Shown here: in pieces, positions 27,331-56,024 of the stretch
Numbering within the stretch: the stretch's first letter is position 1
How the letters are laid out: every line of letters begins with the position of its first letter
NCBI GenBank assembly: GCA_964036195.1
Contig: OZ038459.1
Span: 21,883,206-21,947,205, forward strand
DNA from: Sphaerolaimus hirsutus
Lineage: Eukaryota > Nematoda > Chromadorea > Monhysterida > Sphaerolaimidae
Reading direction: 5' to 3'
Length of the DNA: 64,000 nt
The notes under the pieces: model-generated
Database searches by the model: none
What the model was told of the DNA's origin: nothing
Seen by the model: the letters and a program-made list of their open reading frames with translations, nothing else
Translations under genes and position numbers: made by a program

Positions 27331-28140
27331 TGAGTTCAGTCAACGTAAACTAAATTTTTTTACTTTTACTCATGAGTAAACGTGAGTAAACGTACTTCTC
27401 CTCTCAGAAAACGTAAACGTGAGTACTTTTGCGAAATGTTGTCAAAATTTTCACTCAGAATAACTCATTTTCATAACTATCTGCCTATTTTTCGCAATTT
27501 TTGACCATATATTTGTTTCTACCGTATTTCCTCGAAATACCCCCCCCCCCCCTCTCGAGACCACTATGAAACAATCACCCCCCCCCCCCTTCGAAATACC
27601 CCCCCCCCCCAGATTGAGTGTAAAGAGAACGTACATGACAAATACGGCAGTTTGTGTTCTGCGTAGTGCAGAACACACGTTAAAACAATGTTGGAATCAC
27701 GTTAGAACAGTGTTTATACCATCTACGTACTAATGTTAGTATACAGGAGTCTATACATGTCAGTTATTGATGCATTTTTCTACCCCAGCGCACATCACAG
27801 ACCACGATTTTGTACTAGGATTTCAAACAATTTCCTCTGAAATAATAACCCCCCCCCCTCTCGGGAGCACTATGAAACAATCACCCCCCGGGGGGCATTT
27901 CGAGGAAATACGGTATACACATTTTTGACCAGTTTCCCATATCTTTAGCATATTTTCACCCACCTTTAAAAATCCATATAAAAGACGTTTGAAATACGTT
28001 TTCTGTACTCGAGTACTTTCAAAAATATACGTAAATGCGAGTACAGGAACTGTTTTCGGAGGAAACGTAAACGTATTTACTCTGTACTCGAGTATACGTA
28101 TTTATCGAGTAAAAGTAAATACGTTTTAACAACTGTGTGC
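27331..28140. mobile_element. Foldback element with nested C-rich foldback element
   Basis: The outer arms carry degenerate 'gagtaaacgtaaa' words at 27345-27440 and inverse words at 28010-28130. Nested at about 27520-27915 is a copy of the 'accgtatttcctcgaaatac' family with long poly-C arms. The words 'gtacatgacaaatac' and 'agtttgtgttctgcgtagtg' are shared with the copy at 34350-34790. Confidence 0.85.
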
Positions 28141-28883
28141 CACTGTGACTCCGATATGAAACTTACCGTATTTCCTCGAATAACCCCCCGGGGGTGATTG
28201 TTTCATGGTGCAAATTTTGCTTCAGGGGGGTTCTGGGTTTTTTGGGGAGGTTCTTTCTAGGGTGCAAACGGGACCAGTTTTCGGGACCGGGACCAGAAAG
28301 TTTACAATGTCGGGACCGGGACCGGGCCCAGGACTGGGTGGTCGGTACCGGGACCGGGACCAGGAATTTCACTTCTCACTTTGCGGAACTGGCACCATGT
28401 GGCGCCAAAGGAGCCATGGCGCTTATCAGAATAAAAATACCGGGAGATCGCCGATAAACGATACAAACGTTAAGACCGTGGGAGATAGCGGGTGTCAGAA
28501 ATTTATGTGGTTGCAATTTTTTTGGCGCAGAGCCAGGTAAAATAAAAAAGCCAGATGCTTTTGCTGGGGGCAGTTCCGCACCTGTAAAGTGTCAAGTAAA
28601 GTGTCAAAAGCCACACAACAATTTGTATGGCATTTTCCGTAACAGTTGATAATTGAGGCTTTTGGTTCCGTAACTCCGTAACCGTAGCGTAACCGGTTCC
28701 GTAACCGTAGCGCGTTATCGACAAAACATAAGTAATTTTGAATGCATACTTTGTGGTCCGCCGAGTATAACAATAATTAAACCTTGCAATTCTATTCATC
28801 AGATCGAAAAAGTAGTAATTTTGTGGGTAACATAGCACGCGGGTTTAATTGTGTTTACAGTAAATGGTAATTTGCAGTGTCCC
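28141..28883. repeat. Mixed simple-repeat remnants
   Basis: 28166-28200 is one end of the C-rich foldback family. 28255-28370 is a (GGGACC)n block starting 'gggtgcaaacgggaccag', related to 41535-42378. 28575-28625 carries 'cacctgtaaagtgtcaag' words resembling the introner family interior. 28660-28715 repeats 'ccgtaaccgtagcg'. No gene is supported; the overlapping ORFs are products of the repeats. Confidence 0.65.
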
Positions 28884-29586: not shown

Positions 29587-30341
29587 AACATCAATACAGG
29601 ATATTAAATTTTAAAAATCTCGTTTCCGCGTTGCCATCAACAGAGATAATAAATATATAAAAATGTGCATTCACCGGTGTGTTGTGAGATAAATAAGCGA
29701 TAATTTTTTTTGCATACGAAATGTTCCCGCTTTTGAAAACTTGAAAATCGTTTTTGGCTTCCTGAAACCCCCCCCCTTTATTCCTCTTGATAAAATGTCT
29801 CGGACAACTTCAATCAGAGAACAGAGGCAGTCCAGCATACTGTTACATGCCTTGTAAAATGTCAAATGACATGCAAAGTGTCAAAAGTTATGTAAAATAC
29901 TTGGAAAATGTCAAATGTCATGCAAAGTGTCAAATCATGCAAAATATAAGTATACGATAAGTGGCAATTACTTCCAATTGCCAATTTACCTGTCACTAGG
30001 TTTACAAGCTCTAGTCCTTTTATTTATCGCTTGTCACTATACTCATCACTAATTACTTATCTTTTGATTCGTTTAATTACAGTATTGACCATACCTAGGC
30101 TTATCATAAAATCACATGTCATTTCAATTTGTTAGTTAACTATAAACACGCAAAAACCCCAAACTCCCTTAACGTGCTCAGTGGACATCTATACCCCCTG
30201 GACATCCAGCGCACACACACAGTGTGCTGGAGCACTTACTGGGTTGTCGTAATGATCTTGAATTGAATTTGGTAATGATCTAAATTTCGAACACATTTTC
30301 ATTGATTATTCTTTTTTACACGCACAGAACTGACTTCAACT
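29587..30341. other. Intergenic region upstream of the receptor gene
   Basis: 29845-29945 has direct repeats of 'aaaatgtcaaatg.catgcaaagtgtcaaa' words like the interior of the introner-like elements, but no recognisable ends. Just before the receptor ATG there is a strong splice-acceptor-like tract, 'cttttttacacgcacag' (30311-30327). Confidence 0.5.
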
Positions 30342-33300
30342 ATGTGCAACACCAGTCTACATCTAGAATTAAATACAGCACAAATCATTGAGCTATACTC
30401 ATCATTGACATTGGCATTGTTTGGAATATTGACGAATGTGGCACTTTTTACAGTTTCATACATGACCCAACTATTGGACCCATGTGTGAGGTGGCAATTT
30501 CTCAACTTGGCTGTGACACTGTTTATATGGCTGGGCAATATGGTAGCTGTGAAAGGACATACAATTTGGTTCATGTATAGGGTGTCCAGAAAATTGTGGC
30601 CTTATTGGCTGCTCAAATGTCATCAAACGAAACACATTCTTTGTTGATTTTTAGGAATTCGTGATGATTAGGATAATTATTTAGGACCTTTTGATACTGA
30701 TCTAAATTTTTCCAAAATTTCTGATCCTGACTTTTTGTATTAAATAATATGAAATGTGCTTTATGTCTAATATTCCCAACAAGACATTTGATGGCATTTG
30801 TGTCAAAATAAAAAACAACATTCAGACAGCATTATCAACATTGTTCAAAATCAACATTTGGTATTCAATATGAAGTGACACACATCATTTGGATAACATA
30901 TATGTGGTTCCAATGATTCAGGTCCATCGTTTTGGTCCCACAATACACAAATGAATGTTTTGTCTTTTACCTAATGCCAGCACAAAAAAGTATATCATTG
31001 TTCCATCATCACTAAATATTTAGTGGTTAGTTTTTTCTGTGCTTACAGCAGGGACAAAATGAACAATATGGTTCAGGCATTGCACGCAAGTAAAAACAGT
31101 GTACATCATGCTACACATGTTCTTATCTTTTTTGCTGAAATCAAAATAATCCCAAACAATTTTTAACAGTTTTGTGAAATTTTGAAAACAATGATGTCAT
31201 AGTAGTTGAAAATGTGCACCGCATTTTCCTGGACACCTGGTATATTCTGAAAGATCAATGCCAACTGATGGTAAGTAAATAAATATCCTAGAGTGTGAAA
31301 CAGGTGGTGAGGGAAAATGAAACACAGGACGGAAACACAGGGGAGCACATCTCATTTGCCCTCAACGCATCTATGCATGTGGTGGTGCAGCAGCCAATGG
31401 CATAATCAGAGATTTTGGCTATGCTGTACCCCAATTGAAGATTTTAAGTCCTGCAAAATTTTGGCAGTTATTTTCCAACTCTTGTTCAGAAGTTTGACTG
31501 GTGTTTCCATTTGAAATTCCAGCCAGTTTTTCAAACAATTGTGTGAAATAAATACTAACATGTGTTTGCATGAAATTCCAACCAGTGTATGAAAAACATG
31601 AATGAAATTGAAAATGCAGACACTAATCCGAATTTCCAGATATAAGACAATTAAGAATTTCAAGAAATAGATTTTTGTACATACATGGGATGTTTCATTT
31701 GTGCCACTGTTATTGTCTTGGCACAGTGCCATCCCCTTTCATTGTGCTGCCACACAAACGCACAGGATGCATAGATGTGCTGAGAGCATATTTACATGTG
31801 CTGGGACTAAATATGTGCAGAGAGTGTGGATGCACTGAGGGACACCACCAACAAGAACAGTGAAAAAGACACACTTAACATTTGAAAATTTAAAAAAATC
31901 AGGTGACAAGAACATATTTATGAAAATACAGATGGAAAGACAAACATGCAGCATCATTTTATGGCCTCAAGCATCTCAGTACTGTACAATGGTGTTCATC
32001 TACACAATTTTGGCATTACGCCAAATTTGGATTACTGCAAAACTGTCAAAAGATATGGGGACAGGCAAAACTTTGAAACCTATTCTAAATGAGGATGATA
32101 CAAGTCGTGTCAGCAAAGTTTTCATGATAGGTGGGTGAGAAAGTTGTTTTTATCTTTAGACTGTAAACATATTAAGAGTATTGCAACCATGCACACAAGT
32201 ATGTACACTATTATAATTTGGGAAACTCATAAATTGTTTTGAGCACATTTGAGTTGACAAGAATCAAAGTTTTTCTGTTGACAATCAACAGTAGTTGACA
32301 AACTTCTCATTCTGGTAAACTAAAATGTGTTCAAAACAAATTTCAGTGGTGTACTCATGTGCGCTGCGCCATTCAACTACAACTTCGCAGTTTTGCCGTG
32401 GCTCCTTGGATGGCTTCTAGTTGGACAGCGCGTGATTGTCTATCAATTCATAGAGCCCTACGCATCTCTCGCACAGGTGCCACTCCCAGACCCTGTAGAA
32501 AGCCCTGTAAAATGTCAAATGTCATGCAAAGTGTCAAAAGTCACGGAAAATGCCTTGCAAAATGACAACCGAGTCGCCATTTTGCAGGGCATTTTCCATG
32601 ACGTTTGAAATTTTACAGGGCTTTTTACAGGGTCTAGGAGTGCCCCCAGGACATCCTACCACTGTGCATCCTCGACGAAGTTATCGGAGTAACATTTCTC
32701 GATCAATTTCTGCAAGTTACGCTAATTTTTCTGGCACTTTTCTGTCTAATTGTCAATGTGGTGACCCTAAAAATGAGCAAAGCATTTTGGAATGATTTTG
32801 GGAGGCAGCCGCAGCCGCTACTGGTGCCACTCCCAGACCCTGTAAAATGTCAAATGTCGTGCAAAGTGCCAAAAGGCATGGAGAATGCCCTGCACAATGG
32901 CGACTCGGTTTCCATTTTGCGGGGCATTTTCCATGACTTTTGACACTTTGTATGACATTTGATGTTTTACAGAGCTTTTACAGGGTCTGGGAGTGCCCCC
33001 AGGTGAGGCTTAGAATTAAAAGGAGTATACTCAATACAAGGTGAGTATTTATATATACTGAAGATGCACATTTGTCTGTAAAGAGGCAAATTTCTGAACC
33101 AAGAACACAACCTAATATTTATGAAGTAGTGTAAGAAAAGTTTCAAATGTTAACCAGAATTAAAATTCAAGTAAAAATTGATTTGCCTCGGATGTCTAGG
33201 GCATACAAATGTGCACATTGAATGCACAAAAGTCCAGAAATTGCTGTTGTCTAGGAGTCATTGATGTCAGCACCACAGCTGCAGTGTTTCATTGAAATAC

Positions 33301-33733
33301 CAGTGTTTTTCAAAAATACAGCCAAAACAAATTTGATTGAAAAATATCAACCAAAAAATCATTGCATTTCACACGCAGAGCCATGCTCAAATTCATAGCA
33401 TTCCACGGATGCATGTCATTTGTGACGGTCACACTATACAGCGTATGGCAATTTTTGGGACATGAAATGTGGCAAGTCACAGCTTGGATATCAATGGCGG
33501 TATACACTTTCGCACTTTTCAGTCCCTGTTTTGGCCCAATTTTATTGATACAATCACAAGATGCGCTCCATAATACGTATATACATTTGAAATGGAAAAT
33601 GATGTTTTGGAACAATGCCAATTTAGACAAAAATAACCCAAATGGACGTGGCGCTGATCGGATGTCGAGAATTGTGAATTCGGCGCGCGGAGAAAACGCT
33701 CAGAAGACATATTTTGTGTTGTACAAATTTTGA
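30342..33733 (+). CDS. Seven-transmembrane receptor, rhodopsin-GPCR-like, 379 aa
   Basis: Exons 30342-30581, 31932-32134, 32347-32476, 32650-32823, 33003-33040 and 33379-33733 total 1140 nt including TGA with consistent phases. The N-terminus is short and extracellular with an N-x-S site. TM1 contains 'GILTNVALF' (G-x-x-x-N pattern) and TM2 'LNLAVTLFIW', very like the LNLAVAD motif of rhodopsin-class receptors. TM3 and TM4 are in exons 2-3, TM5 in exon 4. Exon 5 (12 codons) is a basic third intracellular loop. TM6 and TM7 are in exon 6, where TM7 ends 'SPCFGPILLI' in the place of NPxxY, followed by a basic tail of about 60 residues. The DRY motif is not clear. Ligand unknown; a divergent, probably lineage-specific receptor at the plasma membrane. 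Introns 3 and 4 (32477-32649 and 32824-33002) are exactly two inverted-repeat elements. Confidence 0.83.
32477..32649 (+). mobile_element. Introner-like element 1 = complete intron 3 of the receptor
   Basis: A 173-nt foldback element: the left end 'gtgccactcccagaccctgt' and the right end 'acagggtctaggagtgcccc' followed by cag are inverted copies. The interior has 'aaatgtcaaatgtcatgc' words and an inner palindrome around 'cattttgcagggcattttcc'. Its first bases are the GT donor and its last the AG acceptor. The exons join ...GCA CAG|GAC ATC... in phase 0. CAG precedes it and also forms its last three bases, compatible with a 3-bp target duplication that supplies the acceptor. Confidence 0.85.
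32824..33002 (+). mobile_element. Introner-like element 2 = complete intron 4 of the receptor
   Basis: A 179-nt second copy of the same element in the same orientation, starting 'gtgccactcccagaccctgt' and ending 'gggagtgcccccag'. The exons join ...CTA CTG|GTG AGG... in phase 0. Interior words match copy 1 with substitutions and small indels, so the two are separate, older insertions rather than one recent duplication. The flank is CTG on the left and CAG on the right. Confidence 0.85.
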
Positions 33734-34349: not shown

Positions 34350-34790
34350 CGTATTTCCTCGAAATACCCCCCCCCCCTCGTTTGACCCCCCCCCTCTCGA
34401 GACCACTATGAAACAATCACCCCCCCCCTCGAAATACCCCCCCCCAAATTGAGTGTAAAGAGAACGTACATGACAAATACTGCAGTTTGTGTTCTGCGTA
34501 GTGCAGAACACACCTTAAAACAATGTCGGAATCACGTTAGAACAGTGTTTATACCATCTACGTACTAATATTAGTCTACAGAACCTTATAAATGGCGGTT
34601 TTTGTTGCATTTTTCGACGTCTGCATACGTTTCAGACGACAATTTCGTACTTGGTTTTCAAAAATTTTCTTGTGAAATAATAACCCCCCCCTTCGAAATA
34701 CCCCCCCCCCCTCGTTTGACCCCCCCCCCTCTCGGGACCACTATGTAACAATCACCCCTCTGGGGGTATTTCGAGGAAATACGGTAGTAC
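34350..34790. mobile_element. C-rich foldback element
   Basis: Starts 'accgtatttcctcgaaatac' and ends 'gtatttcgaggaaatacggt'; poly-C arms, interior matching 27600-27850. Confidence 0.9.
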
Positions 34791-36730: not shown

Positions 36731-37985
36731 CTTATTTTCCATAGTGGAAATTTTGAGGGGGTTATTCGAGGGCGGTATTTCCAGAATTATTATTTCGCCA
36801 GAATTTCCCTGAACTCCCAGTACTAATTCGTTGTTTGTAACGTATGCAGACGTAAAAAAATGTAATGTATAAGGGTCTACAGACTTCAGTATATAAGTAT
36901 TTATGTAGATGGTATAAAACATGATCTGAAGGAATGAAGGGATGTAACATGATAAGAAACAAGTGTTTTTGAAAAAATGATAAACTTTCAGTTTTTTTTT
37001 CAGTAGCAATATGGTAGATTTCATTGTAAATAGTGTTATCATTCTACTTTATTCATTATGAAGTTTCAAATTTATCTCATTACAATAGAAACTCTCAATT
37101 ATTTATAAGTAACTTAACCAAATCGCTAAGAAAACAGAAAGCACACAATATCTTTTCTGACGAAATTTTAATACAGAAGCATCACATGAAATCACCTTAC
37201 TGGCCGTAGCATATTGAACATTATCAACAATGTCAAAAAAAGTCGATTTTAATTGCCAAAGAAACTTTAAATCAAGTCTTAGAAAATGGAAAACAAGCTG
37301 TACACCAACTAGCCAATTCTGAAAGCTTTAAGAAACCTCTGTAAATAGTTCATTACTCTCATGCAAATGTGACATGTTTATGTATGTTTGACTAAAAAAT
37401 TATTATGGTAAATATATATATATATATATATGGTATATATATATATATATTATGGTATATATATATTGATCCTTACATTTATGATTTTAACTGAATATAT
37501 ATATATTGATCCTTACATTTATGATTTTAACTGAATATCCCAGTGTTTTTTACCAAAAAATGAACAGAGAATCCTGAAACATGTGCTTCAAAAAGCAACT
37601 TGGTGATACAAACTTTGCCACACTTTCTTTTTTGCCATTTTATCCAAAGATAACTTCTGAAAAACTATCAGGATCATTTCATTTTAGATCAGCAGATGCA
37701 CTGAAGAAGTGGGCAGATTGAGCATGAATTTTCCCAATTTTTTTACACTCATCTACAAATAAATCATTGCTAAAATACAAAATATTCATTCCTTAAGCTA
37801 CAACAGCTGAAGAAGTGACAAGTTTTAAACAGCCCGTACAGTTGTGACAAGCTCAGTGACAAGTTCTAAGAGACAAGTATCAGAAATCACTTGGTACAGA
37901 ACCTTTATCACCACTAAACTTTCCACTCATACATTACTTACTAAATACTTCCCTTGCCACTTGTCCACTTGCAAATTGGCACCCA
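36731..37985. other. Intergenic; duplicated AT-microsatellite segment
   Basis: 37405-37465 is a (TA)n tract; 37464-37500 and 37501-37540 are direct copies of 'tgatccttacatttatgat' plus flank. No gene is supported in the rest. Confidence 0.5.
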
Positions 37986-38231
37986 GCGCCACTCCAGGCC
38001 CTGTAAAATGCCAAATGGCATGCAAAATGTCAAAAGTCATGGAAAATGGCAAACAGTTTGACATTTTACAGGGTCTGTGAGTGTTCTCGGAGGTACCCTA
38101 TGTAAAATGTCTGGAAAATGTCAAATTTTATTCGTATTATTTACTGGTTATTTGACATTTTACAAAACTTTTGCCACTTTGCATGACATTTTATTTTTTA
38201 CAAGGAACTACAGGGTCTGGGAATGCCCCAG
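37986..38231 (+). mobile_element. Intergenic relative of the introner-like element
   Basis: Left end 'cgccactccaggccctgt', right end 'ctacagggtctgggaatgcc' followed by ccag. It is preceded by CAG and ends in CAG, as in element 1. The interior contains an extra half-copy (about 38040-38110 ends with 'acagggtctgtgagtg'). At the donor position it has C-G-C instead of G-T, so this copy could not splice. Confidence 0.75.
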
Positions 38232-40305: not shown

Positions 40306-41466
40306 ACCGAAAACCAAACACCTAAAATCAATATTCAGGTAATAAATAAATTATTACATGGCTTATTACATATCCATCTCAATATTTCTCAAAAATTGTC
40401 ACCTGAGGACAGTCCCGCACCCTGTAACGTGCCAAGTAAAGTATCAAATGTGGTGTAGAACGTCAATTAAAATGAAAAGATGCATTTTTCGGGCCAGGCC
40501 TATTACGCATGTAAACCCGTTACGCATGTAGACTCATTATAGACACAATATGCCTGCAGGGGTAAGAAATGGGGCAGGTAACCCCACCGCAAACCGCCCA
40601 GCTATCTATCAATCAGAGGCAAAATTTTGGGCTACTTTTCTCTGAACAGCCCCCCCCCCCCCCGCAAATTGCCTGGCTATCTAGCTATCTGGAGCGCTTT
40701 TGAGAAATTTCATCATCTTTTTCTCCCAAAGTCGCTAATTTTCATACTTTTTCAGATTGTCACCTTTAAAATCACTAGGCAATATGTTTTATTGCTTATT
40801 TTCAGCATGTCTGGTATAGTGGAATGCATGCTGGGTCTGCATGCGTGATGGGTTTACATGCGTTATGGCACAGGGCCGCATTCTTCACGTCTCACCCCAG
40901 GAACGCCCCCCCCTGATACAGATACCAACACAAAAAACCCTCAAAACCCGCACCTCCGTGGCGTCAGCAGTACTCGATTGTGGCTCCTGGCGCCCGGCGC
41001 CATTGGCACCCGACCTATCAGCTTCGTAGGCGGGGTTTTCGAAGCCGCTGGCGCTCGCGTGGCGCCGCCTTCTATGGCGCTTGTGGCGGTGTTTGGCACC
41101 TGAAATTGGGGAGGGGGGTATTTAAGAGTGCTGGCTAAAATGTGGGCTTGTAGTGGATCAGTTTACCAGTGTGCACCAAATGTCTACTGGTTCCCATCCC
41201 AATTCAAAGCTTGCTCACGGCTATCTAGCCACCTGTAGCGATTTTTGGAAAATGTCGCTTCAATTTTTTCGCGAATCACATGTCGGGCACAAATCAAATC
41301 AATGTAGATGTACTTTACCCTTTATCCCCTATTTTCAGCTACAAGTGTTTTATCTACCTATTATACCCATATCTTTATAGCTATTTCTCCTTTTTCTACC
41401 TTCCACACCTTGAAAAAGCCTACATATTGAACCCAACAGCGGTTCAAATCTAAAAGGCCTATCGGC
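40306..41466. other. Intergenic repeat debris
   Basis: 40405-40460 has 'cccgcaccctgtaacgtgcc', related to the 28575 block. 40640-40660 is a C run. 40955-41100 is rich in GGCGCC words. No spliced gene is supported. Confidence 0.45.
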
Positions 41467-43156: not shown

Positions 43157-46100
43157 ATGAGCGACGATAGTTTTTTTAGCCCAGAGAGTGGAAAAACAGC
43201 CAGAATGGCAGGAAAATTGCAGTTTACGAGCGGTGAATTCACCGCGAAAATTACAGATCTGCTGGCGGGCAGAAAGCGTGCAGCCCTTGTGTTTATCGCG
43301 TTTCAGCTGCGAGAAAAGCGGCAACCCACGTGGCCAAAAGTGAAAAATCCAGCCGATTTAACCACGAAAAATTTGGCAAAAGCCCTGCAGAGCATGGCCG
43401 CAGCATATTTCGCGACAAGCGACACACTAACCATCGAGGATCCAGATACAGACGATGCAGGGGGCCAAAGCGACCCCGCAGAACCGGACGACGACGGGGA
43501 CACAGCTAACAGGGTCGATGATTTGATCCAACTGGTGCAAACCACCATGAAACAGCACCAATCCGCGTTGCAACAACAGCAGGCGGATATCGCGCATCTA
43601 ATGCAGGCACAGGGATCATCGACAAGCACGCAGAGTCCAACCCCAGATGTGAAACCCGCGATTCCAGCCACGACGGACATAGATCATTGGAAATTAAAAA
43701 CAGAGCACCGCCTGGCAATGTTGCGGCGGGACACGCTGCTGAACCAAATAATTCAATACATTGAGCTTTTTGTCATGACACCCGCAGACCACACACAGTC
43801 CCTATCGCAAGCGGCACTGCTGACCACAGCACGCGACAAAATGGGTGCTGGACATGTGGCAGGGGCAGCAAAGAAGCAACAGCAATTCGACGGGGAATCG
43901 AACGCGACCACAGGACCATTTCGGTGGTGGCTACAGGGAATCGCGCAGCAAGCAATTGGCGTCCCAGAAGCGCACCAGCAGATGTTCTGGAATCTAGTTT
44001 TTGCTCACTGTCTGACAGGGGAGGCCCAGAAACGGTACCAGGCGGTACGCGCAGACCGCCGCCACGACCCTTTGTTTGTGATTGACAGATTGACGCATAT
44101 TTACTGCGTGGACCACAGGCTATATTCAGTCACGGACTGGTACGCACTAAAAGCCAAACCAGGCGACTCAGTAGTGGATCTGCAGACACAGCTGAGTGCC
44201 GCTTTTCATCACGTCAGCGACACAATGGCGGATGATGACCGCGAAAAAATGATTGGAGACAAATTATTCATCGAAGTAGTAAAACTACTCCCTTCGTCGT
44301 GCTGGTATACGTGGCGCCAACGCTGGCAAGAGAAATCGTGCGACCTAGACACAGCGGTGTCAATGATGGAAGCGGCCAGAATCGAAATACAAAAAAACAG
44401 AGCGCAGAAACGCGAAGACCAGAGAGACAGACGCCAGAATTGGAACTCGAATTACAAAGCGCAGAGCGCGGCAGCAAGGGAACCTGAAGTCAAGGCAACA
44501 TTTGACCCTAAGACGCACACAGGACCATGGTGCACGCATTTCATGCACAGGGAGCCCATGCCGCACGACCCAGCCAAGTGCTACGTAAATCCAAGTTCCA
44601 CACAGTTCCGGCCAGAAAGAGCGGAAAGTATACGAAAAGGACTAGCGCGCAAAGGGAAGACAGAGGAAGATGCAATCGCATCTATGAGGAAAAAATGCCA
44701 GGAAATGGGAGTGGCATATCAGGACGAAGCCAGGGTGGCCAGCTGCGCCCCAGAGGATTTGCCCCACAACGACTGGGATGCGTCAGAATCCGAGTCAGAA
44801 GAGGGCGGAGACATCAACGATTTCTGCCCGATGGCATTCTGGACGCAGAGCACAGAAGGCGAACCCAAGTGTGCACAACTGGGGGAACCCGACCCAGTGG
44901 CCACAATCCAGTTCATGGGGGTAGACATTCAGGGGCACATCGACACCGGCTGTAATATTGGCATTTTTATCGAAGACACACTGCTGGAACAGGTGTGGGC
45001 AAAAGTGGGCTGCAACGCGGCCAAAGAAAGGGAAAAATTTAAACCCTACCCCTACAGCAGAATTAGAACCTCAGGCGAAGCCATTCAAGGGAAAAACCTG
45101 CGAGTGTATGAGATGCAAGTAGCGCACACAACGCCCGACAAAACAACGCGAAGAGATACACTGCCAGCAGTGGTCAAGTTGATGGCACACCTACCCCCAG
45201 CAGACCCCCTGCTCCTGGGAAGAGCAGCAATTTGGGGGAAATTGCAGATTATCCAAGACGCCCATGCAGAATTAGACAGACTGGCGCAGGTTTATGATGA
45301 AACGCAACAGGTATTCGCAACGGGTGACAAAAATAGCAGTTTCAGGACGGCAGACGTCTGCACATTAGAACCCATGACAATCCCAGCGGGAGCGCGGCAG
45401 CGCATCACAGTGGGCACACAAAAAATACCCGAGTGGATTAGCAAACCAGGGAAAGGCTCGGGAATGGCGCTGGACCCGTATTACAGAAACAGCGAAGGGG
45501 AAATGGCCACATTTGTGCCAGGCCTAGTGTGCAACACAACCCTGCACCCGCGCCACGACTGGATTGAACAAGCAAGTTTCCCACTGCACGTAGTCAACCA
45601 GACGGGACACGAACAGTTTTTGCCAAGAAACACAAAAGTTGCAGAGGTATTTTTTGTCACAGAAGCCCTGGTAGAAGACGAGCAAAGCATAAAGGCAACA
45701 GGGACAACAGCCCTGCCCGAACCCCCCCCACCAAGCGACCAGCAAGGGGGCACCGATGTGCCACTTACAGAAGAACAGGTAGCACAGATTGAGGAAATCT
45801 GGCGACGACTACCAGCAGAAAGCCGAGATGCCCTCCCAAAAGAACAAGCGGAGCAATTTAAGTACCTGTTGGCGCGACAAACGGGACTATTCAGCCTGAC
45901 TGAATATGACATAGGGGAGACACAAATTCTAGATCACAAAATCACGCTGGTCGACGGCGCAGAGCCGGTAAAGTGTGCAGCACGGTTCGAAACCCCCCCA
46001 AAACGCGCATTCGTATGGCGCACAGTGGATGAAATGGTCAAAAAAGGGCTGATTGTGCCGTCCACATCGCCATGGGCATTCCCGCTGGTGATAGTGCCCA

Positions 46101-48295
46101 AAGGCAAGGACGATTACCGCCTCTGTTTAGACTTCAGGAAATTGAACGAACTCACAATCCGCGATGCATACCCATTGCCGCGAATCACAGACATGTTCCA
46201 ACAGATGAGCGGCCGGAGCATGTTTTCCACCATGGACGCGAGTTTTGGATACTACAATGTTCGAATTGCCGACCCAGCCACCCAAGAAATGGTCACATTT
46301 GTGTGTAGCAAGGGGCAATTTTCGTACACGCGGATGCCGCTGGGTCTAGTGAATGCAGGCGCGAGTTTCCAGAGACTCATGGACTGCGTCCTAGCGGGGT
46401 TAAACACAGAAGCAGAAAGACCGGCGTTCTTCGCCTACATTGACGATGTACTGGTGGCCAGCAACAACACGACACAGCACATGCAGCACCTGGTGCAGCT
46501 GTTCAACAGACTAAAATGGGCCGGAATCCGGCTGAAGCCAGAAAAATGTTTTTTCTTTTGCCGCACAGTGAAATTCCTAGGTTTTGAATTAAGCGAGAAA
46601 GGAATTGCTCCAAAACGCAGCAATATCGCAGCGATCTTGGAAATGCCAGTCCCAACGACAAAGCAAAACATCAAAACATTCCTGGGGAAAGCAGGTTACT
46701 TTAGCCAGCACATACCAGGGTTCCAACGACTGGCGGCACCATTGAACGAAATGGCGAAGGGAAAATACAGAGTGAATGGGAATGACCCAATTCCGGAATA
46801 CGCAGAGTGGTCAGAAGAGGCCAAGGAGGCATGGGACACATTGAAGAAGCGACTGAGCACAGCACCAGTACTAGCACACCCGGACAGAAAAAACCGTATT
46901 ACCTGTACACTGACGCATGTGATTACGGGTTAGGGGCGGTACTGATGCAGCGGGATGACATGACAAGCGGGAAGTTGCGCCCAGTATCTTTTGTGTCGAA
47001 ACGCCTCCCGACAAGCCACAAAAATTGGTCAACAATTGAAAAGGAGGCCCTGGCATGCACATGGGCCCTGGACCGGCTAGGCGATTTTATAGATGGGCAA
47101 AAGGTCGTCCTAAGAACAGACCACAAAGCACTAGTGAGCGCCCTGTTAAAACCAGCCAAGGGAAAAGTAGAACGATGGACTCACCGGTGGGCAGTTCGAC
47201 TGTCCCTGAAAGATTTAGTCATTGAATACTGCCCCGGGGAACAGAACGTGATTGCGGATGCGCTGAGTAGGAACCCGATAGCGGACGCCGACGACATTGC
47301 ATTCCAACAAGCCAGCGAAGTGATTCGAGTCCCGCTGGAAAAACTGTGCCCGCACATGTCGCAGAACACAACCGCAGGAACTATAGACTGGGTCGTGGAA
47401 CAGGGAAAAGACAAAAAAATCGTAGACATTAGGGGAAAATTGAAGGGAAACCAGATGGGCGGAATACAGTACAGCTTACAAAGGGACATTGTGCTGTACA
47501 ACGCCACACAGGGCGCAGTCCCTATGGTACCCAATCACCTACGAGCACAACTAATTGCACAAGCCCACGCAGGTCTGACGGGCACGCATGGCGGCGTAGA
47601 ACGAACACTACAGAGACTGGCGCAGCAGGCAGGGTGGCCAGCGATGCGCAAAGACATCACCGAATTTGTGGAACAGTGTGCAACATGTAAATTGACTAAA
47701 GATGCACAAAGAACATGTGTAAGCCCACTATTCCCAGTGGCACCAGGAACGCGACCATGGGCCAAGGTAGCGATGGACACAACCCCGATGCCTGTGTTCG
47801 CAAATTACCGACATATGCTAGTCATAACAGACTACTTGACCCGCGCGGTTATCTTGGCACCTTTGAGACACCTCACAGGCACACAAATCGCAGAATCAAT
47901 AGAAAAACGTCTGATTTTCCAGTTCGGGGCACCACAAGAGGTGGTTTGCGACAACGGCACCGAATTCATCAACAAAGACATCGACCGGCTCGCAGACAAA
48001 TGGGGTTTCACTATGCGCCCAACCACGCCATATCATTCCCAATCAAACGGGTTGGCGGAAAGGTCCCTTCGAAGCGCAGAGCAATTAGTGCGCCAGTGGG
48101 CCCAAGCAAATAATCAATCTCGCAACTGGCCAAGCGCACTGCCGGAAATTTCGCTCCGAATGAATGTGGCGTACAACCGAGATATCGCACATGCCCCATT
48201 CGAATTACTTTTTGGGTACATGCCCTCTATTTTAGGCAAAACAGGAGTGAGAACAGATAAAATCTGTCCAGAAAGGAAACAAGAACCACCACCAC
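43157..48295 (+). pseudogene. Ty3/gypsy-type gag-pol, copy 1 (full gag, frameshifted, 3'-truncated)
   Basis: The frame opens at ATG 43157 and runs as one gag-pol ORF to 46933. One base is missing near 46889 compared with copies 2 and 3, and the reading resumes in another frame to 48312. Domains in order: a long gag with no classical CCHC knuckle; protease with 'HIDTGCNIG' (about 44940); reverse transcriptase with 'FAYIDDVLV' (about 46430); RNase H with 'YTDACDYG' and 'TDHKAL'; integrase with the HHCC zinc region and the Asp, Asp, Glu triad ('DTTPMP', 'CDNGTEF', 'AERSLRS'). The domain order RT-RH-IN is that of Ty3/gypsy. The sequence stops inside integrase where the next copy begins. It is notably GC-rich for this region. 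Confidence 0.9.
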
Positions 48296-51200
48296 GGACT
48301 GGTACGCACTAAAAGCCAAACCAGGCGACTCAGTAGTGGATCTGCAGACACAGCTGAGTGCCGCTTTTCATCACGTCAGCGACACAATGGCGGATGATGA
48401 CCGCGAAAAAATGATCGGAGACAAATTATTCATCGAAGTAGTAAAACTACTCCCTTCGTCGTGCTGGTATACGTGGCGCCAACGCTGGCAAGAGAAATCG
48501 TGCGACCTAGACACAGCGGTGTCAATGATGGAAGCGGCCAGAATCGAAATACAAAAAAACAGAGCGCAGAAACGCGAAGACCAGAGAGACAGACGCCAGA
48601 ATTGGAACTCGAATTACAAAGCGCAGAGCGCGGCAGCAAGGGAACCTGAAGTCAAGGCAACATTTGACCCTAAGACGCACACAGGACCATGGTGCACGCA
48701 TTTCATGCACAGGGAGCCCATGCCGCACGACCCAGCCAAGTGCTACGTAAATCCAAGTTCCACACAGTTCCGGCCAGAAAGAGCGGAAAGTATACGAAAA
48801 GGACTAGCGCGCAAAGGGAAGACAGAGGAAGATGCAATCGCATCTATGAGGAAAAAATGCCAGGAAATGGGAGTGGCATATCAGGACGAAGCCAGGGTGG
48901 CCAGCTGCGCCCCAGAGGATTTGCCCCACAACGACTGGGATGCGTCAGAATCCGAGTCAGAAGAGGGCGGAGACATCAACGATTTCTGCCCGATGGCATT
49001 CTGGACGCAGAGCACAGAAGGCGAACCCAAGTGTGCACAACTGGGGGAACCCGACCCAGTGGCCACAATCCAGTTCATGGGGGTAGACATTCAGGGGCAC
49101 ATCGACACCGGCTGTAATATTGGCATTTTTATCGAAGACACACTGCTGGAACAGGTGTGGGCAAAAGTGGGCTGCGACGCGGCCAAAGAAAGGGAAAAAT
49201 TTAAACCCTACCCCTACAGCAGAATTAGAACCTCAGGCGAAGCCATTCAAGGGAAAAACCTGCGAGTGTATGAGATGCAAGTAGCGCACACAATGCCCGA
49301 CAAAACAACGCGAAGAGATACACTGCCAGCAGTGGTCAAGTTGATGGCACACCTACCCCCAGCAGACCCCCTGCTCCTGGGAAGAGCAGCAATTTGGGGG
49401 AAATTGCAGATTATCCAAGACGCCCATGCAGAATTAGACAGACTGGCGCAGGTTTATGATGAAACGCAACAGGTATTCGCAACGGGTGACAAAAATAGCA
49501 GTTTCAGGACGGCAGACGTCTGCACATTAGAACCCATGACAATCCCAGCGGGAGCGCGGCAGCGCATCACAGTGGGCACACAAAAAATACCCGAGTGGAT
49601 TAGCAAACCAGGGAAAGGCTCGGGAATGGCGCTGGACCCGTATTACAGAAACAGCGAAGGGGAAATGGCCACATTTGTGCCAGGCCTAGTGTGCAACACA
49701 ACCCTGCACCCGCGCCACGACTGGATTGAACAAGCAAGTTTCCCACTGCACGTAGTCAACCAGACGGGACACGAACAGTTTTTGCCAAGAAACACAAAAG
49801 TTGCAGAGGTATTTTTTGTCACAGAAGCCCTGGTAGAAGACGAGCAAAGCATAAAGGCAACAGGGACAACAGCCCTGCCCGAACCCCCCCCACCAAGCGA
49901 CCAGCAAGGGGGCACCGATGTGCCACTTACAGAAGAACAGGTAGCACAGATTGAGGAAATCTGGCGACGACTACCAGCAGAAAGCCGAGATGCCCTCCCA
50001 AAAGAACAAGCGGAGCAATTTAAGTACCTGTTGGCGCGACAAACGGGACTATTCAGCCTGACCGAATATGACATAGGGGAGACACAAATTCTAGATCACA
50101 AAATCACGCTGGTCGACGGCGCAGAGCCGGTAAAGTGTGCAGCACGGTTCGAAACCCCCCCAAAACGCGCATTCGTATGGCGCACAGTGGATGAAATGGT
50201 CAAAAAAGGGCTGATTGTGCCGTCCACATCGCCATGGGCATTCCCGCTGGTGATAGTGCCCAAAGGCAAGGACGATTACCGCCTCTGTTTAGACTTCAGG
50301 AAATTGAACGAACTCACAATCCGCGATGCATACCCATTGCCGCGAATCACAGACATGTTCCAACAGATGAGCGGCCGGAGCATGTTTTCCACCATGGACG
50401 CGAGTTTTGGATACTACAATGTTCGAATTGCCGACCCAGCCACCCAAGAAATGGTCACATTTGTGTGTAGCAAGGGGCAATTTTCGTACACGCGGATGCC
50501 GCTGGGTCTAGTGAATGCAGGCGCGAGTTTCCAGAGACTCATGGACTGCGTCCTAGCGGGGTTAAACACAGAAGCAGAAAGACCGGCGTTCTTCGCCTAC
50601 ATTGACGATGTACTGGTGGCCAGCAACAACACGACACAGCACATGCAGCACCTGGTGCAGCTGTTCAACAGACTAAAATGGGCCGGAATCCGGCTGAAGC
50701 CAGAAAAATGTTTTTTCTTTTGCCGCACAGTGAAATTCCTAGGTTTTGAATTAAGCGAGAAAGGAATTGCTCCAAAACGCAGCAATATCGCAGCGATCTT
50801 GGAAATGCCAGTCCCAACGACAAAGCAAAACATCAAAACATTCCTGGGGAAAGCAGGTTACTTTAGCCAGCACATACCAGGGTTCCAACGACTGGCGGCA
50901 CCATTGAACGAAATGGCGAAGGGAAAATACAGAGTGAATGGGAATGACCCAATTCCGGAATACGCAGAGTGGTCAGAAGAGGCCAAGGAGGCATGGGACA
51001 CATTGAAGAAGCGACTGAGCACAGCACCAGTACTAGCACACCCGGACAGAACAAAACCGTATTACCTGTACACTGACGCATGTGATTACGGGTTAGGGGC
51101 GGTACTGATGCAGCGGGATGACATGACAAGCGGGAAGTTGCGCCCAGTATCTTTTGTGTCGAAACGCCTCCCGACAAGCCACAAAAATTGGTCAACAATT

Positions 51201-52458
51201 GAAAAGGAGGCCCTGGCATGCACATGGGCCCTGGACCGGCTAGGCGATTTTATAGATGGGCAAAAGGTCGTCCTAAGAACAGACCACAAAGCACTAGTGA
51301 GCGCCCTGTTAAAACCAGCCAAGGGAAAAGTAGAACGATGGACTCACCGGTGGGCAGTTCGACTGTCCCTGAAAGATTTAGTCATTGAATACTGCCCCGG
51401 GGAACAGAACGTGATTGCGGATGCGCTGAGTAGGAACCCGATAGCGGACGCCGACGACATTGCATTCCAACAAGCCAGCGAAGTGATTCGAGTCCCGCTG
51501 GAAAAACTGTGCCCGCACATGTCGCAGAACACAACCGCAGGAACTATAGACTGGGTCGTGGAACAGGGAAAAGACAAAAAAATCGTAGACATTAGGGGAA
51601 AATTGAAGGGAAACCAGATGGGCGGAATACAGTACAGCTTACAAAGGGACATTGTGCTGTACAACGCCACACAGGGCGCAGTCCCTATGGTACCCAATCA
51701 CCTACGAGCACAACTAATTGCACAAGCCCACGCAGGTCTGACGGGCACGCATGGCGGCGTAGAACGAACACTACAGAGACTGGCGCAGCAGGCAGGGTGG
51801 CCAGCGATGCGCAAAGACATCACCGAATTTGTGGAACAGTGTGCAACATGTAAATTGACTAAAGATGCACAAAGAACATGTGTAAGCCCACTATTCCCAG
51901 TGGCACCAGGAACGCGACCATGGGCCAAGGTAGCGATGGACACAACCCCGATGCCTGTGTTCGCAAATTACCGACATATGCTAGTCATAACAGACTACTT
52001 GACCCGCGCGGTTATCTTGGCACCTTTGAGACACCTCACAGGCACACAAATCGCAGAATCAATAGAAAAACGTCTGATTTTCCAGTTCGGGGCACCACAA
52101 GAGGTGGTTTGCGACAACGGCACCGAATTCATCAACAAAGACATCGACCGGCTCGCAGACAAATGGGGTTTCACTATGCGCCCAACCACGCCATATCATT
52201 CCCAATCAAACGGGTTGGCGGAAAGGTCCCTTCGAAGCGCAGAGCAATTAGTGCGCCAGTGGGCCCAAGCAAATAATCAATCTCGCAACTGGCCAAGCGC
52301 ACTGCCGGAAATTTCGCTCCGAATGAATGTGGCGTACAACCGAGATATCGCACATGCCCCATTCGAATTACTTTTTGGGTACATGCCCTCTATTTTAGGC
52401 AAAACAGGAGTGAGAACAGATAAAATCTGTCCAGAAAGGAAACAAGAACCACCACCAC
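48296..52458 (+). pseudogene. Ty3/gypsy-type element, tandem copy 2 (5'- and 3'-truncated)
   Basis: A 4163-bp unit starting in the last third of gag and ending at the same integrase point as copy 1. It has a single uninterrupted frame of 1379 codons (48336-52475) covering partial gag, protease, reverse transcriptase, RNase H and most of integrase. The first codon called is GTG, so no authentic start is present. It differs from copy 1 by only a few substitutions plus the restored base near 51050. There is no LTR between copies. Confidence 0.9.
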
Positions 52459-55400
52459 GGACTGGTACGCACTAAAAGCCAAACCAGGCGACTCAGTAGT
52501 GGATCTGCAGACACAGCTGAGTGCCGCTTTTCATCACGTCAGCGACACAATGGCGGATGATGACCGCGAAAAAATGATTGGAGACAAATTATTCATCGAA
52601 GTAGTAAAACTACTCCCTTCGTCGTGCTGGTATACGTGGCGCCAACGCTGGCAAGAGAAATCGTGCGACCTAGACACAGCGGTGTCAATGATGGAAGCGG
52701 CCAGAATCGAAATACAAAAAAACAGAGCGCAGAAACGCGAAGACCAGAGAGACAGACGCCAGAATTGGAACTCGAATTACAAAGCGCAGAGCGCGGCAGC
52801 AAGGGAACCTGAAGTCAAGGCAACATTTGACCCTAAGACGCACACAGGACCATGGTGCACGCATTTCATGCACAGGGAGCCCATGCCGCACGACCCAGCC
52901 AAGTGCTACGTAAATCCAAGTTCCACACAGTTCCGGCCAGAAAGAGCGGAAAGTATACGAAAAGGACTAGCGCGCAAAGGGAAGACAGAGGAAGATGCAA
53001 TCGCATCTATGAGGAAAAAATGCCAGGAAATGGGAGTGGCATATCAGGACGAAGCCAGGGTGGCCAGCTGCGCCCCAGAGGATTTGCCCCACAACGACTG
53101 GGATGCGTCAGAATCCGAGTCAGAAGAGGGCGGAGACATCAACGATTTCTGCCCGATGGCATTCTGGACGCAGAGCACAGAAGGCGAACCCAAGTGTGCA
53201 CAACTGGGGGAACCCGACCCAGTGGCCACAATCCAGTTCATGGGGGTAGACATTCAGGGGCACATCGACACCGGCTGTAATATTGGCATTTTTATCGAAG
53301 ACACACTGCTGGAACAGGTGTGGGCAAAAGTGGGCTGCGACGCGGCCAAAGAAAGGGAAAAATTTAAACCCTACCCCTACAGCAGAATTAGAACCTCAGG
53401 CGAAGCCATTCAAGGGAAAAACCTGCGAGTGTATGAGATGCAAGTAGCGCACACAACGCCCGACAAAACAACGCGAAGAGATACACTGCCAGCAGTGGTC
53501 AAGTTGATGGCACACCTACCCCCAGCAGACCCCCTGCTCCTGGGAAGAGCAGCAATTTGGGGGAAATTGCAGATTATCCAAGACGCCCATGCAGAATTAG
53601 ACAGACTGGCGCAGGTTTATGATGAAACGCAACAGGTATTCGCAACGGGTGACAAAAATAGCAGTTTCAGGACGGCAGACGTCTGCACATTAGAACCCAT
53701 GACAATCCCAGCGGGAGCGCGGCAGCGCATCACAGTGGGCACACAAAAAATACCCGAGTGGATTAGCAAACCAGGGAAAGGCTCGGGAATGGCGCTGGAC
53801 CCGTATTACAGAAACAGCGAAGGGGAAATGGCCACATTTGTGCCAGGCCTAGTGTGCAACACAACCCTGCACCCGCGCCACGACTGGATTGAACAAGCAA
53901 GTTTCCCACTGCACGTAGTCAACCAGACGGGACACGAACAGTTTTTGCCAAGAAACACAAAAGTTGCAGAGGTATTTTTTGTCACAGAAGCCCTGGTAGA
54001 AGACGAGCAAAGCATAAAGGCAACAGGGACAACAGCCCTGCCCGAACCCCCCCCACCAAGCGACCAGCAAGGGGGCACCGATGTGCCACTTACAGAAGAA
54101 CAGGTAGCACAGATTGAGGAAATCTGGCGACGACTACCAGCAGAAAGCCGAGATGCCCTCCCAAAAGAACAAGCGGAGCAATTTAAGTACCTGTTGGTGC
54201 GACAAACGGGACTATTCAGCCTGACCGAATATGACATAGGGGAGACACAAATTCTAGATCACAAAATCACGCTGGTCGACGGCGCAGAGCCGGTAAAGTG
54301 TGCAGCACGGTTCGAAACCCCCCCAAAACGCGCATTCGTATGGCGCACAGTGGATGAAATGGTCAAAAAAGGGCTGATTGTGCCGTCCACATCGCCATGG
54401 GCATTCCCGCTGGTGATAGTGCCCAAAGGCAAGGACGATTACCGCCTCTGTTTAGACTTCAGGAAATTGAACGAACTCACAATCCGCGATGCATACCCAT
54501 TGCCGCGAATCACAGACATGTTCCAACAGATGAGCGGCCGGAGCATGTTTTCCACCATGGACGCGAGTTTTGGATACTACAATGTTCGAATTGCCGACCC
54601 AGCCACCCAAGAAATGGTCACATTTGTGTGTAGCAAGGGGCAATTTTCGTACACGCGGATGCCGCTGGGTCTAGTGAATGCAGGCGCGAGTTTCCAGAGA
54701 CTCATGGACTGCGTCCTAGCGGGGTTAAACACAGAAGCAGAAAGACCGGCGTTCTTCGCCTACATTGACGATGTACTGGTGGCCAGCAACAACACGACAC
54801 AGCACATGCAGCACCTGGTGCAGCTGTTCAACAGACTAAAATGGGCCGGAATCCGGCTGAAGCCAGAAAAATGTTTTTTCTTTTGCCGCACAGTGAAATT
54901 CCTAGGTTTTGAATTAAGCGAGAAAGGAATTGCTCCAAAACGCAGCAATATCGCAGCGATCTTGGAAATGCCAGTCCCAACGACAAAGCAAAACATCAAA
55001 ACATTCCTGGGGAAAGCAGGTTACTTTAGCCAGCACATACCAGGGTTCCAATGACTGGCGGCACCATTGAACGAAATGGCGAAGGGAAAATACAGAGTGA
55101 ATGGGAATGACCCAATTCCGGAATACGCAGAGTGGTCAGAAGAGGCCAAGGAGGCATGGGACACATTGAAGAAGCGACTGAGCACAGCACCAGTACTAGC
55201 ACACCCGGACAGAACAAAACCGTATTACCTGTACACTGACGCATGTGATTACGGGTTAGGGGCGGTACTGATGCAGCGGGATGACATGACAAGCGGGAAG
55301 TTGCGCCCAGTATCTTTTGTGTCGAAACGCCTCCCGACAAGCCACAAAAATTGGTCAACAATTGAAAAGGAGGCCCTGGCATGCACATGGGCCCTGGACC

Positions 55401-55690
55401 GGCTAGGCGATTTTATAGATGGGCAAAAGGTCGTCCTAAGAACAGACCACAAAGCACTAGTGAGCGCCCTGTTAAAACCAGCCAAGGGAAAAGTAGAACG
55501 ATGGACTCACCGGTGGGCAGTTCGACTGTCCCTGAAAGATTTAGTCATTGAATACTGCCCCGGGGAACAGAACGTGATTGCGGATGCGCTGAGTAGGAAC
55601 CCGATAGCGGACGCCGACGACATTGCATTCCAACAAGCCAGCGAAGTGATTCGAGTCCCGCTGGAAAAACTGTGCCCGCACATGTCGCAG
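52459..55690 (+). pseudogene. Ty3/gypsy-type element, tandem copy 3 (cut after RNase H)
   Basis: The same unit starts again at the identical junction. A C-to-T change creates a TGA near 55052, splitting the frame (52499-55054, then 55067 onward). Homology stops at 55690, just before integrase, and a few bases later the candidate LTR of retrotransposon 2 begins. Confidence 0.9.
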
Positions 55691-55696
55691 CAAAGG

Positions 55697-55845
55697 TGTT
55701 GTGATTTTGATAACAATGCGAATTCAGATATATTTGATTACTTCTGATTGTGGTAGTATTTAAGCCTTCACTTGGAAGGCTTAAACAGTTTACAGAATTC
55801 CCCAATAAAAAAGGCACTCGAAGAAGTTGATAGACTCATAACACA
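55697..55845 (+). other. Candidate short 5' LTR of retrotransposon 2
   Basis: Starts TGTTGTGA, contains a TATA-like 'agtatttaagcc' and an AATAAA signal near 55804, and ends ACACA, followed after one base by 'tggtggacgagc', a possible primer-binding site. No matching 3' copy was found after 61812, so this remains provisional. Confidence 0.5.
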
Positions 55846-56024
55846 TTGGTGGACGAGCTATTCTTCTTTCATTGCTTTGGTGGGGTGGGACTTACTGTTA
55901 AACTGCATAATTTGGCTACTGCCATTTATGCCAGGAGTCTGCTGATCCTGGGCGTGGCTGGTCCATACCCTTAAGGGTGAAAGCACACGTCCATTGAATA
56001 TTGCTCTTCTTCAGTGTCAATATC

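What the first reader, a model, noticed from the sequence alone, without database searches (positions are those of the whole stretch)
32477..33002. Two receptor introns are complete copies of one inverted-repeat element (introner-like intron birth)
Introns 3 and 4 of the 7-TM receptor contain nothing but copies of the same 173-179-nt foldback element. The element's first bases are the GT and its last are the AG. Both are phase 0, in the same orientation, and excising both restores one 379-codon frame with TM5, the third loop and TM6 intact. No older intron sequence remains, so the simplest reading is that each insertion created an intron. Element ends are asymmetric (GTGCC... versus ...CCCCCAG), as if shaped to carry splice sites. 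Introners are known from several algae and fungi, and MITE-derived introns from a larvacean, but this family appears unnamed as far as I can judge.
Basis: partly seen in the sequence, partly recalled or inferred. Interest (0 to 1): 0.92.

Follow-up and report, generated by a model that had tools for sequence, protein, structure and literature searches.

The report
Jumping DNA that becomes introns
A short hairpin-shaped transposon, present in over two thousand copies in what looks like an animal genome, inserts into genes at CAG or CTG sites in such a way that the insert has the shape of a ready-made intron, so this genome seems to show how new introns are born.

Summary
Confirmed. Introns 3 (32477-32649) and 4 (32824-33002) of a seven-helix receptor gene are nothing but copies of one foldback element: a MITE with a 3-bp CWG target duplication and ends GTGCCA.../GGGGCA..., close to the published signature of NuwaI (PIF/Harbinger-related) transposons. 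The element's first bases (GT) form the donor; the duplicated target CAG forms the acceptor, so removing GT...CAG restores the target exactly. The AG is thus duplicated target, not element.

Gain is supported by paralogs in the same genome: 10 of 10 loci aligned across the first site and 9 of 9 across the second read straight through (tandem duplicate excepted), and paralogs carry copies at other positions. One intron of the main PIGW gene is exactly one copy. The exact 24-base GT end occurs 2,588 times. In 81 sampled copies codon phase mostly continues across exact excision, and the GT end mostly faces the gene's 5' side.

Against a plain GT-AG account, 24 of 81 copies end in CTG, yet look equally in frame (AMPK gamma, trypsin). 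Whether these use TG, an inner AG, or damage genes is open. No RNA data, no transposase and no species comparison were available. Verdict: introner, new variant of a known kind.

The parts
32474..32476 (+). left target-site duplication CAG, last codon (Gln) of exon 3
   Evidence: sequence; family-wide CWG flanks
32477..32649 (+). intron 3: element copy 1 (body 32477-32646) plus right target-site duplication CAG (32647-32649); 173 nt
   Evidence: absent from 10 of 10 paralogous loci aligned across the site
32821..32823 (+). left target-site copy CTG, last codon (Leu) of exon 4; the right copy reads CAG, so the pair differs at the middle base
   Evidence: sequence
32824..33002 (+). intron 4: element copy 2 (body 32824-32999) plus right target copy CAG (33000-33002); 179 nt
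   Evidence: absent from 9 of 9 paralogous loci aligned across the site
32347..32476 (+). receptor exon 3
   Evidence: reading frame, paralogs
32650..32823 (+). receptor exon 4 (TM5 region)
33003..33040 (+). receptor exon 5
33379..33733 (+). receptor exon 6 with stop
   Evidence: paralogs
   Evidence: paralogs
37984..38231 (+). diverged relative of the element, flanked by CAG on both sides (ends read by eye); gene context not tested
28564..28674 (+). partial relative, left end preceded by CTG (by eye)
29828..29945 (+). partial relative, left end preceded by CAG (by eye)
40403..40529 (+). partial relative, left end preceded by CTG (by eye)

Best explanation
Both introns were created when a short non-autonomous DNA transposon, resembling the NuwaI branch of the PIF/Harbinger superfamily, inserted into exons. 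It targets CWG (within C-CWG-G) and duplicates it. One terminal repeat begins GTGCCA, so beside the target it reads CAG|GT or CTG|GT, a donor. The other begins GGGGCA, so the far end plus duplicated target reads TGCCCC-CAG|, an acceptor. The near-perfect foldback leaves GT 4 bases before and AG within 7 bases after the stem. Removing GT...CAG leaves one target copy, so the mRNA is unchanged; insertions at CAG with GT upstream survive in exons as new introns. Where the target was CTG, a T-to-A change at the far copy would make an AG, as intron 4 suggests. Shown: the element, the target duplication, asymmetric ends, in-frame position in coding sequence, absence from paralogs, gains at several positions. 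Inferred: splicing at these ends, the transposase, the T-to-A step.
For: CWG flanks: 27 paired copies in 20 loci gave CAG/CAG 8, CTG/CTG 8, CTG/CAG 6, five others; 81 copies gave 32, 23, 10, sixteen others; wider target C-CWG-G, with C before in 50 of 72 and G after in 37 of 72. Ends: 2,588 exact GT ends and 2,175 exact GG ends, reversed controls 0; 19 of 19 exact pairs are GT/GG. Gain: 10 of 10 and 9 of 9 paralogous loci aligned across intron 3 and intron 4 sites read through. Removing copies at four other positions with GT...AG ends restores the receptor alignment. PIGW intron. Phase: exact excision is the best frame in 54 of 81 against 13 and 14 for joins shifted by 1 and 2 (75 nt); with target plus 6 bases each side masked 45/21/15, 42/19/20, 53/16/12 at 75, 90, 120 nt; mismatched-flank control 22-35 of about 80. 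Direction: clear coding copies have GT on the gene's 5' side in 16-19 cases, the other way in 2-3.
Against: No transcript evidence. The donor GTGCCA is weak and the C-rich acceptor lacks a T tract; better-looking inner signals exist (GTAAAA 18 nt inside, in frame; TTTTACAG 19 nt before the end, out of frame), read by eye. A CTG-ending class (24 of 81) has no AG at the junction but sits in coding sequence as regularly. One end starts GTG, not GGG as is usual in NuwaI, and no transposase was found because that search did not complete (and repeats). Codon-strand calls use a generic model; a first weaker ORF vote gave only 30.5/22/19.5 of 72, and 2-3 clear copies point the other way.
Confidence: 0.88

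Rival explanations
1. Ordinary older introns stood at both positions and the transposon later landed in them or replaced their contents.
For: Transposons in introns are common; intron 1 itself seems to hold another one (seen by eye).
Against: 10 of 10 and 9 of 9 paralogous loci aligned across the sites have no intron there, while alignments of several paralogs break near residue 257, as expected if intron 5 is shared. No other intron sequence remains. Copies lie at other positions in other paralogs.
Confidence: 0.04
2. The copies spread as RNA: a spliced intron was reverse-spliced into new transcripts and copied back (the model proposed for fungal introners).
For: CTG/CAG copies (10 of 81) look like a fixed ...CAG end next to a variable exon end; right ends are CAG more often than CTG. 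Copies sit mostly near exon-like DNA.
Against: CTG/CTG copies are common (23 of 81) and the two flanking W bases agree in 55 of 66 copies with CWG on both sides (counts), which needs a target duplication. Terminal inverted repeats and a palindromic target fit DNA transposition.
Confidence: 0.04
3. The copies are not spliced: they are recent insertions that break genes or are removed at the DNA level, and the regular in-frame position only reflects insertion into exons.
For: Several CTG-ending copies lie in genes with a second locus (AMPK gamma, PIGW C13). PIF/Harbinger-type excision can be precise (recalled). The C13 PIGW locus holds three copies.
Against: Insertion alone gives no reason for GT to face the gene's 5' side (16-19 against 2-3). 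The main PIGW locus has a GT...CAG copy. Receptor introns 3 and 4 persisted through a gene duplication with 91.5-96.6% exon identity and open exons.
Confidence: 0.07

Closest known systems
Introners from DNA transposons (Gozashti et al. 2022, PMC9860276; section 7 and passages read)
   Same: Multicopy elements whose ends coincide with intron ends; one described type carries the 5' splice site and takes the 3' splice site from the target duplication (Chrysochromulina, 4-bp TSD); most leave the mRNA unchanged.
   Different: Here the duplication is 3-bp CWG, the terminal repeats are long and differ at their first bases, and the host appears to be an animal; that survey reports introners in only two animal groups. 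Whether this species was in that survey is unknown.
NuwaI transposons of the PHIS (PIF/Harbinger, ISL2EU, Spy) superfamily (PMC4482050; passages read)
   Same: 5'-CWG-3' target duplication and terminal repeats usually starting GGG; reported only from animals.
   Different: Short foldback without coding capacity; one end starts GTG instead of GGG; the passages seen and a term search of that paper show no mention of introns; transposase not identified here.
Huff et al. 2016 model of intron creation by DNA transposons in algae (recalled; paper not held; cited in other papers)
   Same: Target duplication and terminal repeat together make the splice sites.
   Different: Recalled as 8-bp duplications in two algae; here a 3-bp CWG.
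Transposon-derived introns of the larvacean Fritillaria (recalled; only citing papers seen)
   Same: Animal host and relaxed splice-site rules are discussed there.
   Different: Sequence and target not compared here.
TG 3' splice sites in human U2 introns (PMC2374985; abstract section and outline read)
   Same: A TG used as 3' splice site, as the CTG-ending class would need.
   Different: In human only as an alternative to a nearby AG, never alone.

Membership tests
Introner | family of similar sequences whose ends coincide with intron ends in several genes | tested here: met
   receptor introns 3 and 4, paralogs, PIGW C3; coding phase across exact excision in 81 copies
Introner | introns recently gained, absent from homologs | tested here: met
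   paralogs only: 10 of 10 and 9 of 9 loci; AMPK gamma paralog on C2 has no intron at the site; no other species available
Introner | spliced from transcripts | not testable with these tools
   no RNA data
MITE | short, high copy, inverted repeats | tested here: met
   lengths 103-317 nt in 50 copies, median 176.5; 2,588 exact GT ends; foldback
MITE | target-site duplication | tested here: met
   CWG; identical on both sides in 55 of 81 copies (CAG/CAG 32, CTG/CTG 23)
NuwaI (PHIS superfamily) | CWG target-site duplication | tested here: met
   definition from PMC4482050
NuwaI (PHIS superfamily) | terminal repeats usually starting GGG | tested here: inconclusive
   one end GGGG (31 of 50), the other GTG by selection of the sample
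NuwaI (PHIS superfamily) | DDE transposase plus Myb/SANT protein in the autonomous element | not tested
   search for PF13359 in the genome was sent 12 times and never answered
NuwaI (PHIS superfamily) | paralogous empty sites | tested here: inconclusive
   shown at protein level in paralogs, not as DNA empty sites
RNA-propagated introner-like elements of fungi | no target duplication and no terminal inverted repeats (as described in PMC9860276) | tested here: not met
   both are present

The most novel reading that the evidence does not exclude
The family makes introns whichever target it hits: at CAG a GT-AG intron, at CTG a GT-TG intron that is removed all the same, because the near-perfect hairpin brings the ends together and relieves the need for an AG. 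3' splice sites without AG would then exist in large numbers in one animal genome. Supporting: all 8-9 clear coding copies of the CTG class have GT on the gene's 5' side and none the other way (8-10 and 0 with masking); AMPK gamma, trypsin and a receptor paralog on C9 align without a gap across exact excision of a CTG...CTG copy.
Probability: 0.27. Interest if true: 0.93.

Novelty: new variant of a known kind. Interest (0 to 1): 0.8.

Why it matters
Where new introns come from is an old question, and few cases are known in animals (two animal groups in the survey PMC9860276). Here one genome offers over two thousand copies, a simple rule (a transposon target that equals a proto-splice site), intron-less paralogs in the same genome and several separate gains in one receptor family, so the birth, survival and repair of introns can be measured. 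The CTG-ending class lets one ask whether a spliceosome can do without AG when RNA structure joins the ends.

Tried and rejected
Receptor homologs: no Pfam family; none of 2674 candidates at E 1e-3 in the protein collection. The species and phylum stay unknown; 'animal' is my inference from the gene types. Rfam and tRNA scans of the window gave nothing. A longest-ORF comparison could not decide, and the first ORF frame vote was weak (30.5/22/19.5 of 72). An EM codon model drifted to mirror-image strand labels that contradict the trypsin gene and was dropped for a fixed generic model. Two C15 paralogs gave no exons for the intron 3/4 region. Pfam on junction peptides: of 9, Trypsin and GWT1 passed the cut-off across the junction and one hit was chance-like; of 20, only an LRR family passed, its best stretch lying right of the junction; VWD, cadherin and zinc-finger hits were below cut-off. 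Dropped before counting: 10 of 60 C1 places whose second end my matcher could not pair, copies too near a locus end, duplicates, the receptor's tandem copy L009, and 2 of 83 rows without a GT end. In 7 of 83 rows the right boundary was moved by 1-2 bases to a CWG, which favours CWG. The sample is not random: 19 loci were best matches to copy 1, the rest lie in the first 9.3 Mb of contig C1, and 13 were chosen for exact ends.

Full report
What is in the window. Intron 3 (32477-32649) and intron 4 (32824-33002) of a seven-helix receptor gene each consist of one foldback element and its target duplication. The two copies match at E 3e-34 in direct and 9e-47 in inverted orientation, and share 141 of 160 ungapped columns with 32 gap columns. 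As RNA they fold at -101.9 and -112.5 kcal/mol, z -15.9 and -14.5; GT lies 4 bases before the stem and AG within 7 bases after it. Both lengths are 2 mod 3 and both hold in-frame stops, so the frame continues only if each is removed. The 379-codon length is not certain: one search found 29 open combinations of intron 1 and 2 boundaries among those tried.

What the element is. In the window, nine recognisable ends of six related copies all follow CAG or CTG; I read these by eye. In 20 fetched loci 27 copies could be paired: CAG/CAG 8, CTG/CTG 8, CTG/CAG 6, five others. Of 60 further places on contig C1, 50 could be paired. Together with 13 more chosen for exact ends this gave 83 distinct copies, 81 of them with a GT end: CAG/CAG 32, CTG/CTG 23, CTG/CAG 10, others 16, after moving 7 right boundaries to a CWG. 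The wider target is C-CWG-G (C before in 50 of 72, G after in 37 and A in 22 of 72). The two ends differ: one begins GTGCCA, the other mostly GGGGCA. Where both ends matched their 24-base patterns exactly, 19 of 19 pairs were GT/GG (C1 below 9.24 Mb). The exact GT end occurs 2,588 times in the genome and the exact GG end 2,175 times; the reversed patterns do not occur.

Kinship. A CWG target duplication and terminal repeats usually starting GGG are what PMC4482050 gives for NuwaI transposons, found in 16 animal genomes (passages). The GTG end departs from that. I sent a search for the transposase family PF13359 twelve times and it did not complete (and once more as 137, so thirteen in all), so membership is unproven.

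How it would make an intron. The left target copy (CAG or CTG) stays in the exon, the element supplies GT, and the right target copy supplies CAG. Cutting GT...CAG leaves the original target. The same logic, with a 4-bp duplication, is described for one algal introner in PMC9860276 (section 7).

Evidence for gain. The receptor search of the genome gave 55 matches. A tandem duplicate 48 kb away has both introns; its exons 3-5 are 91.5, 96.6 and 92.1% identical and intron 3 is 94.2% identical. I aligned 14 paralog loci. All 10 whose alignment crosses residue 186/187 read through (L036, L037, L040, L041, L043, L046, L047, L049, L055, L056), and all 9 whose alignment crosses 244/245 (L036, L037, L040, L041, L043, L049, L055, L056, L058). 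L058 carries its own copy beside the first site and was left out of the first count; some loci on C508 and C14 are probably copies of one another. Several alignments break near residue 257, as expected if intron 5 is shared. On checking I also fetched the C9 paralog, whose exon matches break nearby: it reads through 186/187 but holds an insert of a related element (GTGTCAGTTCCGC...GCGGAACTGGCCC, CTG on both sides, 233 nt with one target copy) two codons later, where exact removal gives ANEL|VAHCDHH.

Other insertions in the receptor family. Removing copies restores the protein alignment at residues 34 (L055), 187/188 (L058), 194/195 (L050-L052) and 330/331 (L040, L041); in gene orientation these begin GT and end CAG. 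Three further inserts have no AG at the junction: 218/219 (L046, L047), 71 (L040) and the C9 insert.

Beyond receptors. PIGW/GWT1 gave 7 matches at two loci, C3 and C13. In the stronger C3 locus a 163-nt CAG/CAG copy lies exactly between exons. The weaker C13 locus has two CTG/CTG copies that interrupt continuous coding sequence and a third with degraded flanks; the C3 locus reads through the first of these sites. A trypsin domain (Pfam 6e-10; solved structures) and AMPK gamma (solved AMPK gamma-1, E 4e-34) align without a gap across exact excision of CTG/CTG copies. A second AMPK gamma locus on C2 reads through with no intron. L129 (CAG/CAG) reads like the start of OSCP1, a name that I recall and did not test.

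Population tests. GC of the flanks falls from 0.522 next to the element to 0.39-0.40 at 300-400 nt (72 copies), as expected around GC-rich exons. GC periodicity continues in phase across the exact junction in 39 of 70 copies against 10 and 21 for shifted joins (90 nt). A fixed generic codon model prefers exact excision in 54 of 81 against 13 and 14 (75 nt). With the target and 6 bases on each side masked the counts are 45/21/15, 42/19/20 and 53/16/12 at 75, 90 and 120 nt; joining flanks of different copies gave 22-35 of about 80 over 12 shuffles. Among copies with a clear coding strand GT faces the gene's 5' side in 16-19 and the other way in 2-3; over all 81 copies the masked test gives 55/26, 52/29 and 55/26. 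A weaker ORF vote was not decisive.

What does not fit. CTG-ending copies (24 of 81) should be rare in genes if only GT-AG splicing rescues them. Yet all 8-9 clear coding copies of this class have GT on the 5' side and none the other way (8-10 and 0 when masked). Inner acceptors may serve some: an AG 9 nt upstream keeps frame in about half of the CTG-ending copies listed, and in AMPK gamma an AG 18 nt upstream does. In L018 no in-frame AG lies within the range scanned; L071 has one only 51 nt upstream, L076 one 27 nt downstream, L122 one 33 nt downstream. Either TG can serve when the hairpin joins the ends, or these copies harm genes that have a spare: AMPK gamma and PIGW have a second locus. 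In human genes TG sites occur only as alternatives to AG (PMC2374985, abstract section). CTG/CAG exceeds CAG/CTG 10 to 1 and 6 to 1 in the earlier, overlapping sample, which suggests selection for AG at the right end.

Literature. 'Introner' with 'Harbinger' gave one paper, seen as a listing only. 'NuwaI' or 'PHIS superfamily' gave 82 papers of which 15 were listed; two concern transposons. Searches on introner with nematode, tunicate, MITE/intron gain and horizontal transfer were also run. Within these searches of open-licence papers I saw no report of introns made by CWG-target transposons; subscription papers and preprints are largely missing. PMC9169325 and PMC13326754 were seen as passages.

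Verdict. Very probably a real introner family, with a clear and testable mechanism; new in transposon type and probably host, not in principle. The CTG class could make it considerably more unusual.

Noticed in passing
30578-31242: Intron 1 seems to hold another DNA transposon: TA|GGGTGTCCAGAAAAT ... ATTTTCCTGGACACC(TGG)|TA, seen by eye.
   Followed up: no
43157-55747: Gypsy-like gag-pol reading frames repeated in tandem with a period of about 4,162 bases, pol running on into an inner part of gag; a tandem array or an assembly effect.
   Followed up: no
55998-61812: A second, different Gypsy-like element with a long open frame.
   Followed up: no
L140:133-368; L046:1315-1506; L047:1702-1893: A related element with ends GTGYCAGTTCCGC and other inner sequence, also flanked by CTG, inside receptor paralogs; C9 and C2 paralogs carry different elements at the same codon boundary.
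   Followed up: partly
family-wide: Mixed flanks are nearly always CTG on the left and CAG on the right (10 against 1), although a target duplication should be identical on both sides.
   Followed up: partly
L066:1325-3093: The second PIGW locus holds three copies of the element within 1.8 kb.
   Followed up: partly
27500-28200 and 34350-34450: Repeats built on CGAAATACCCCCCC with long C runs, in direct and inverted copies.
   Followed up: no
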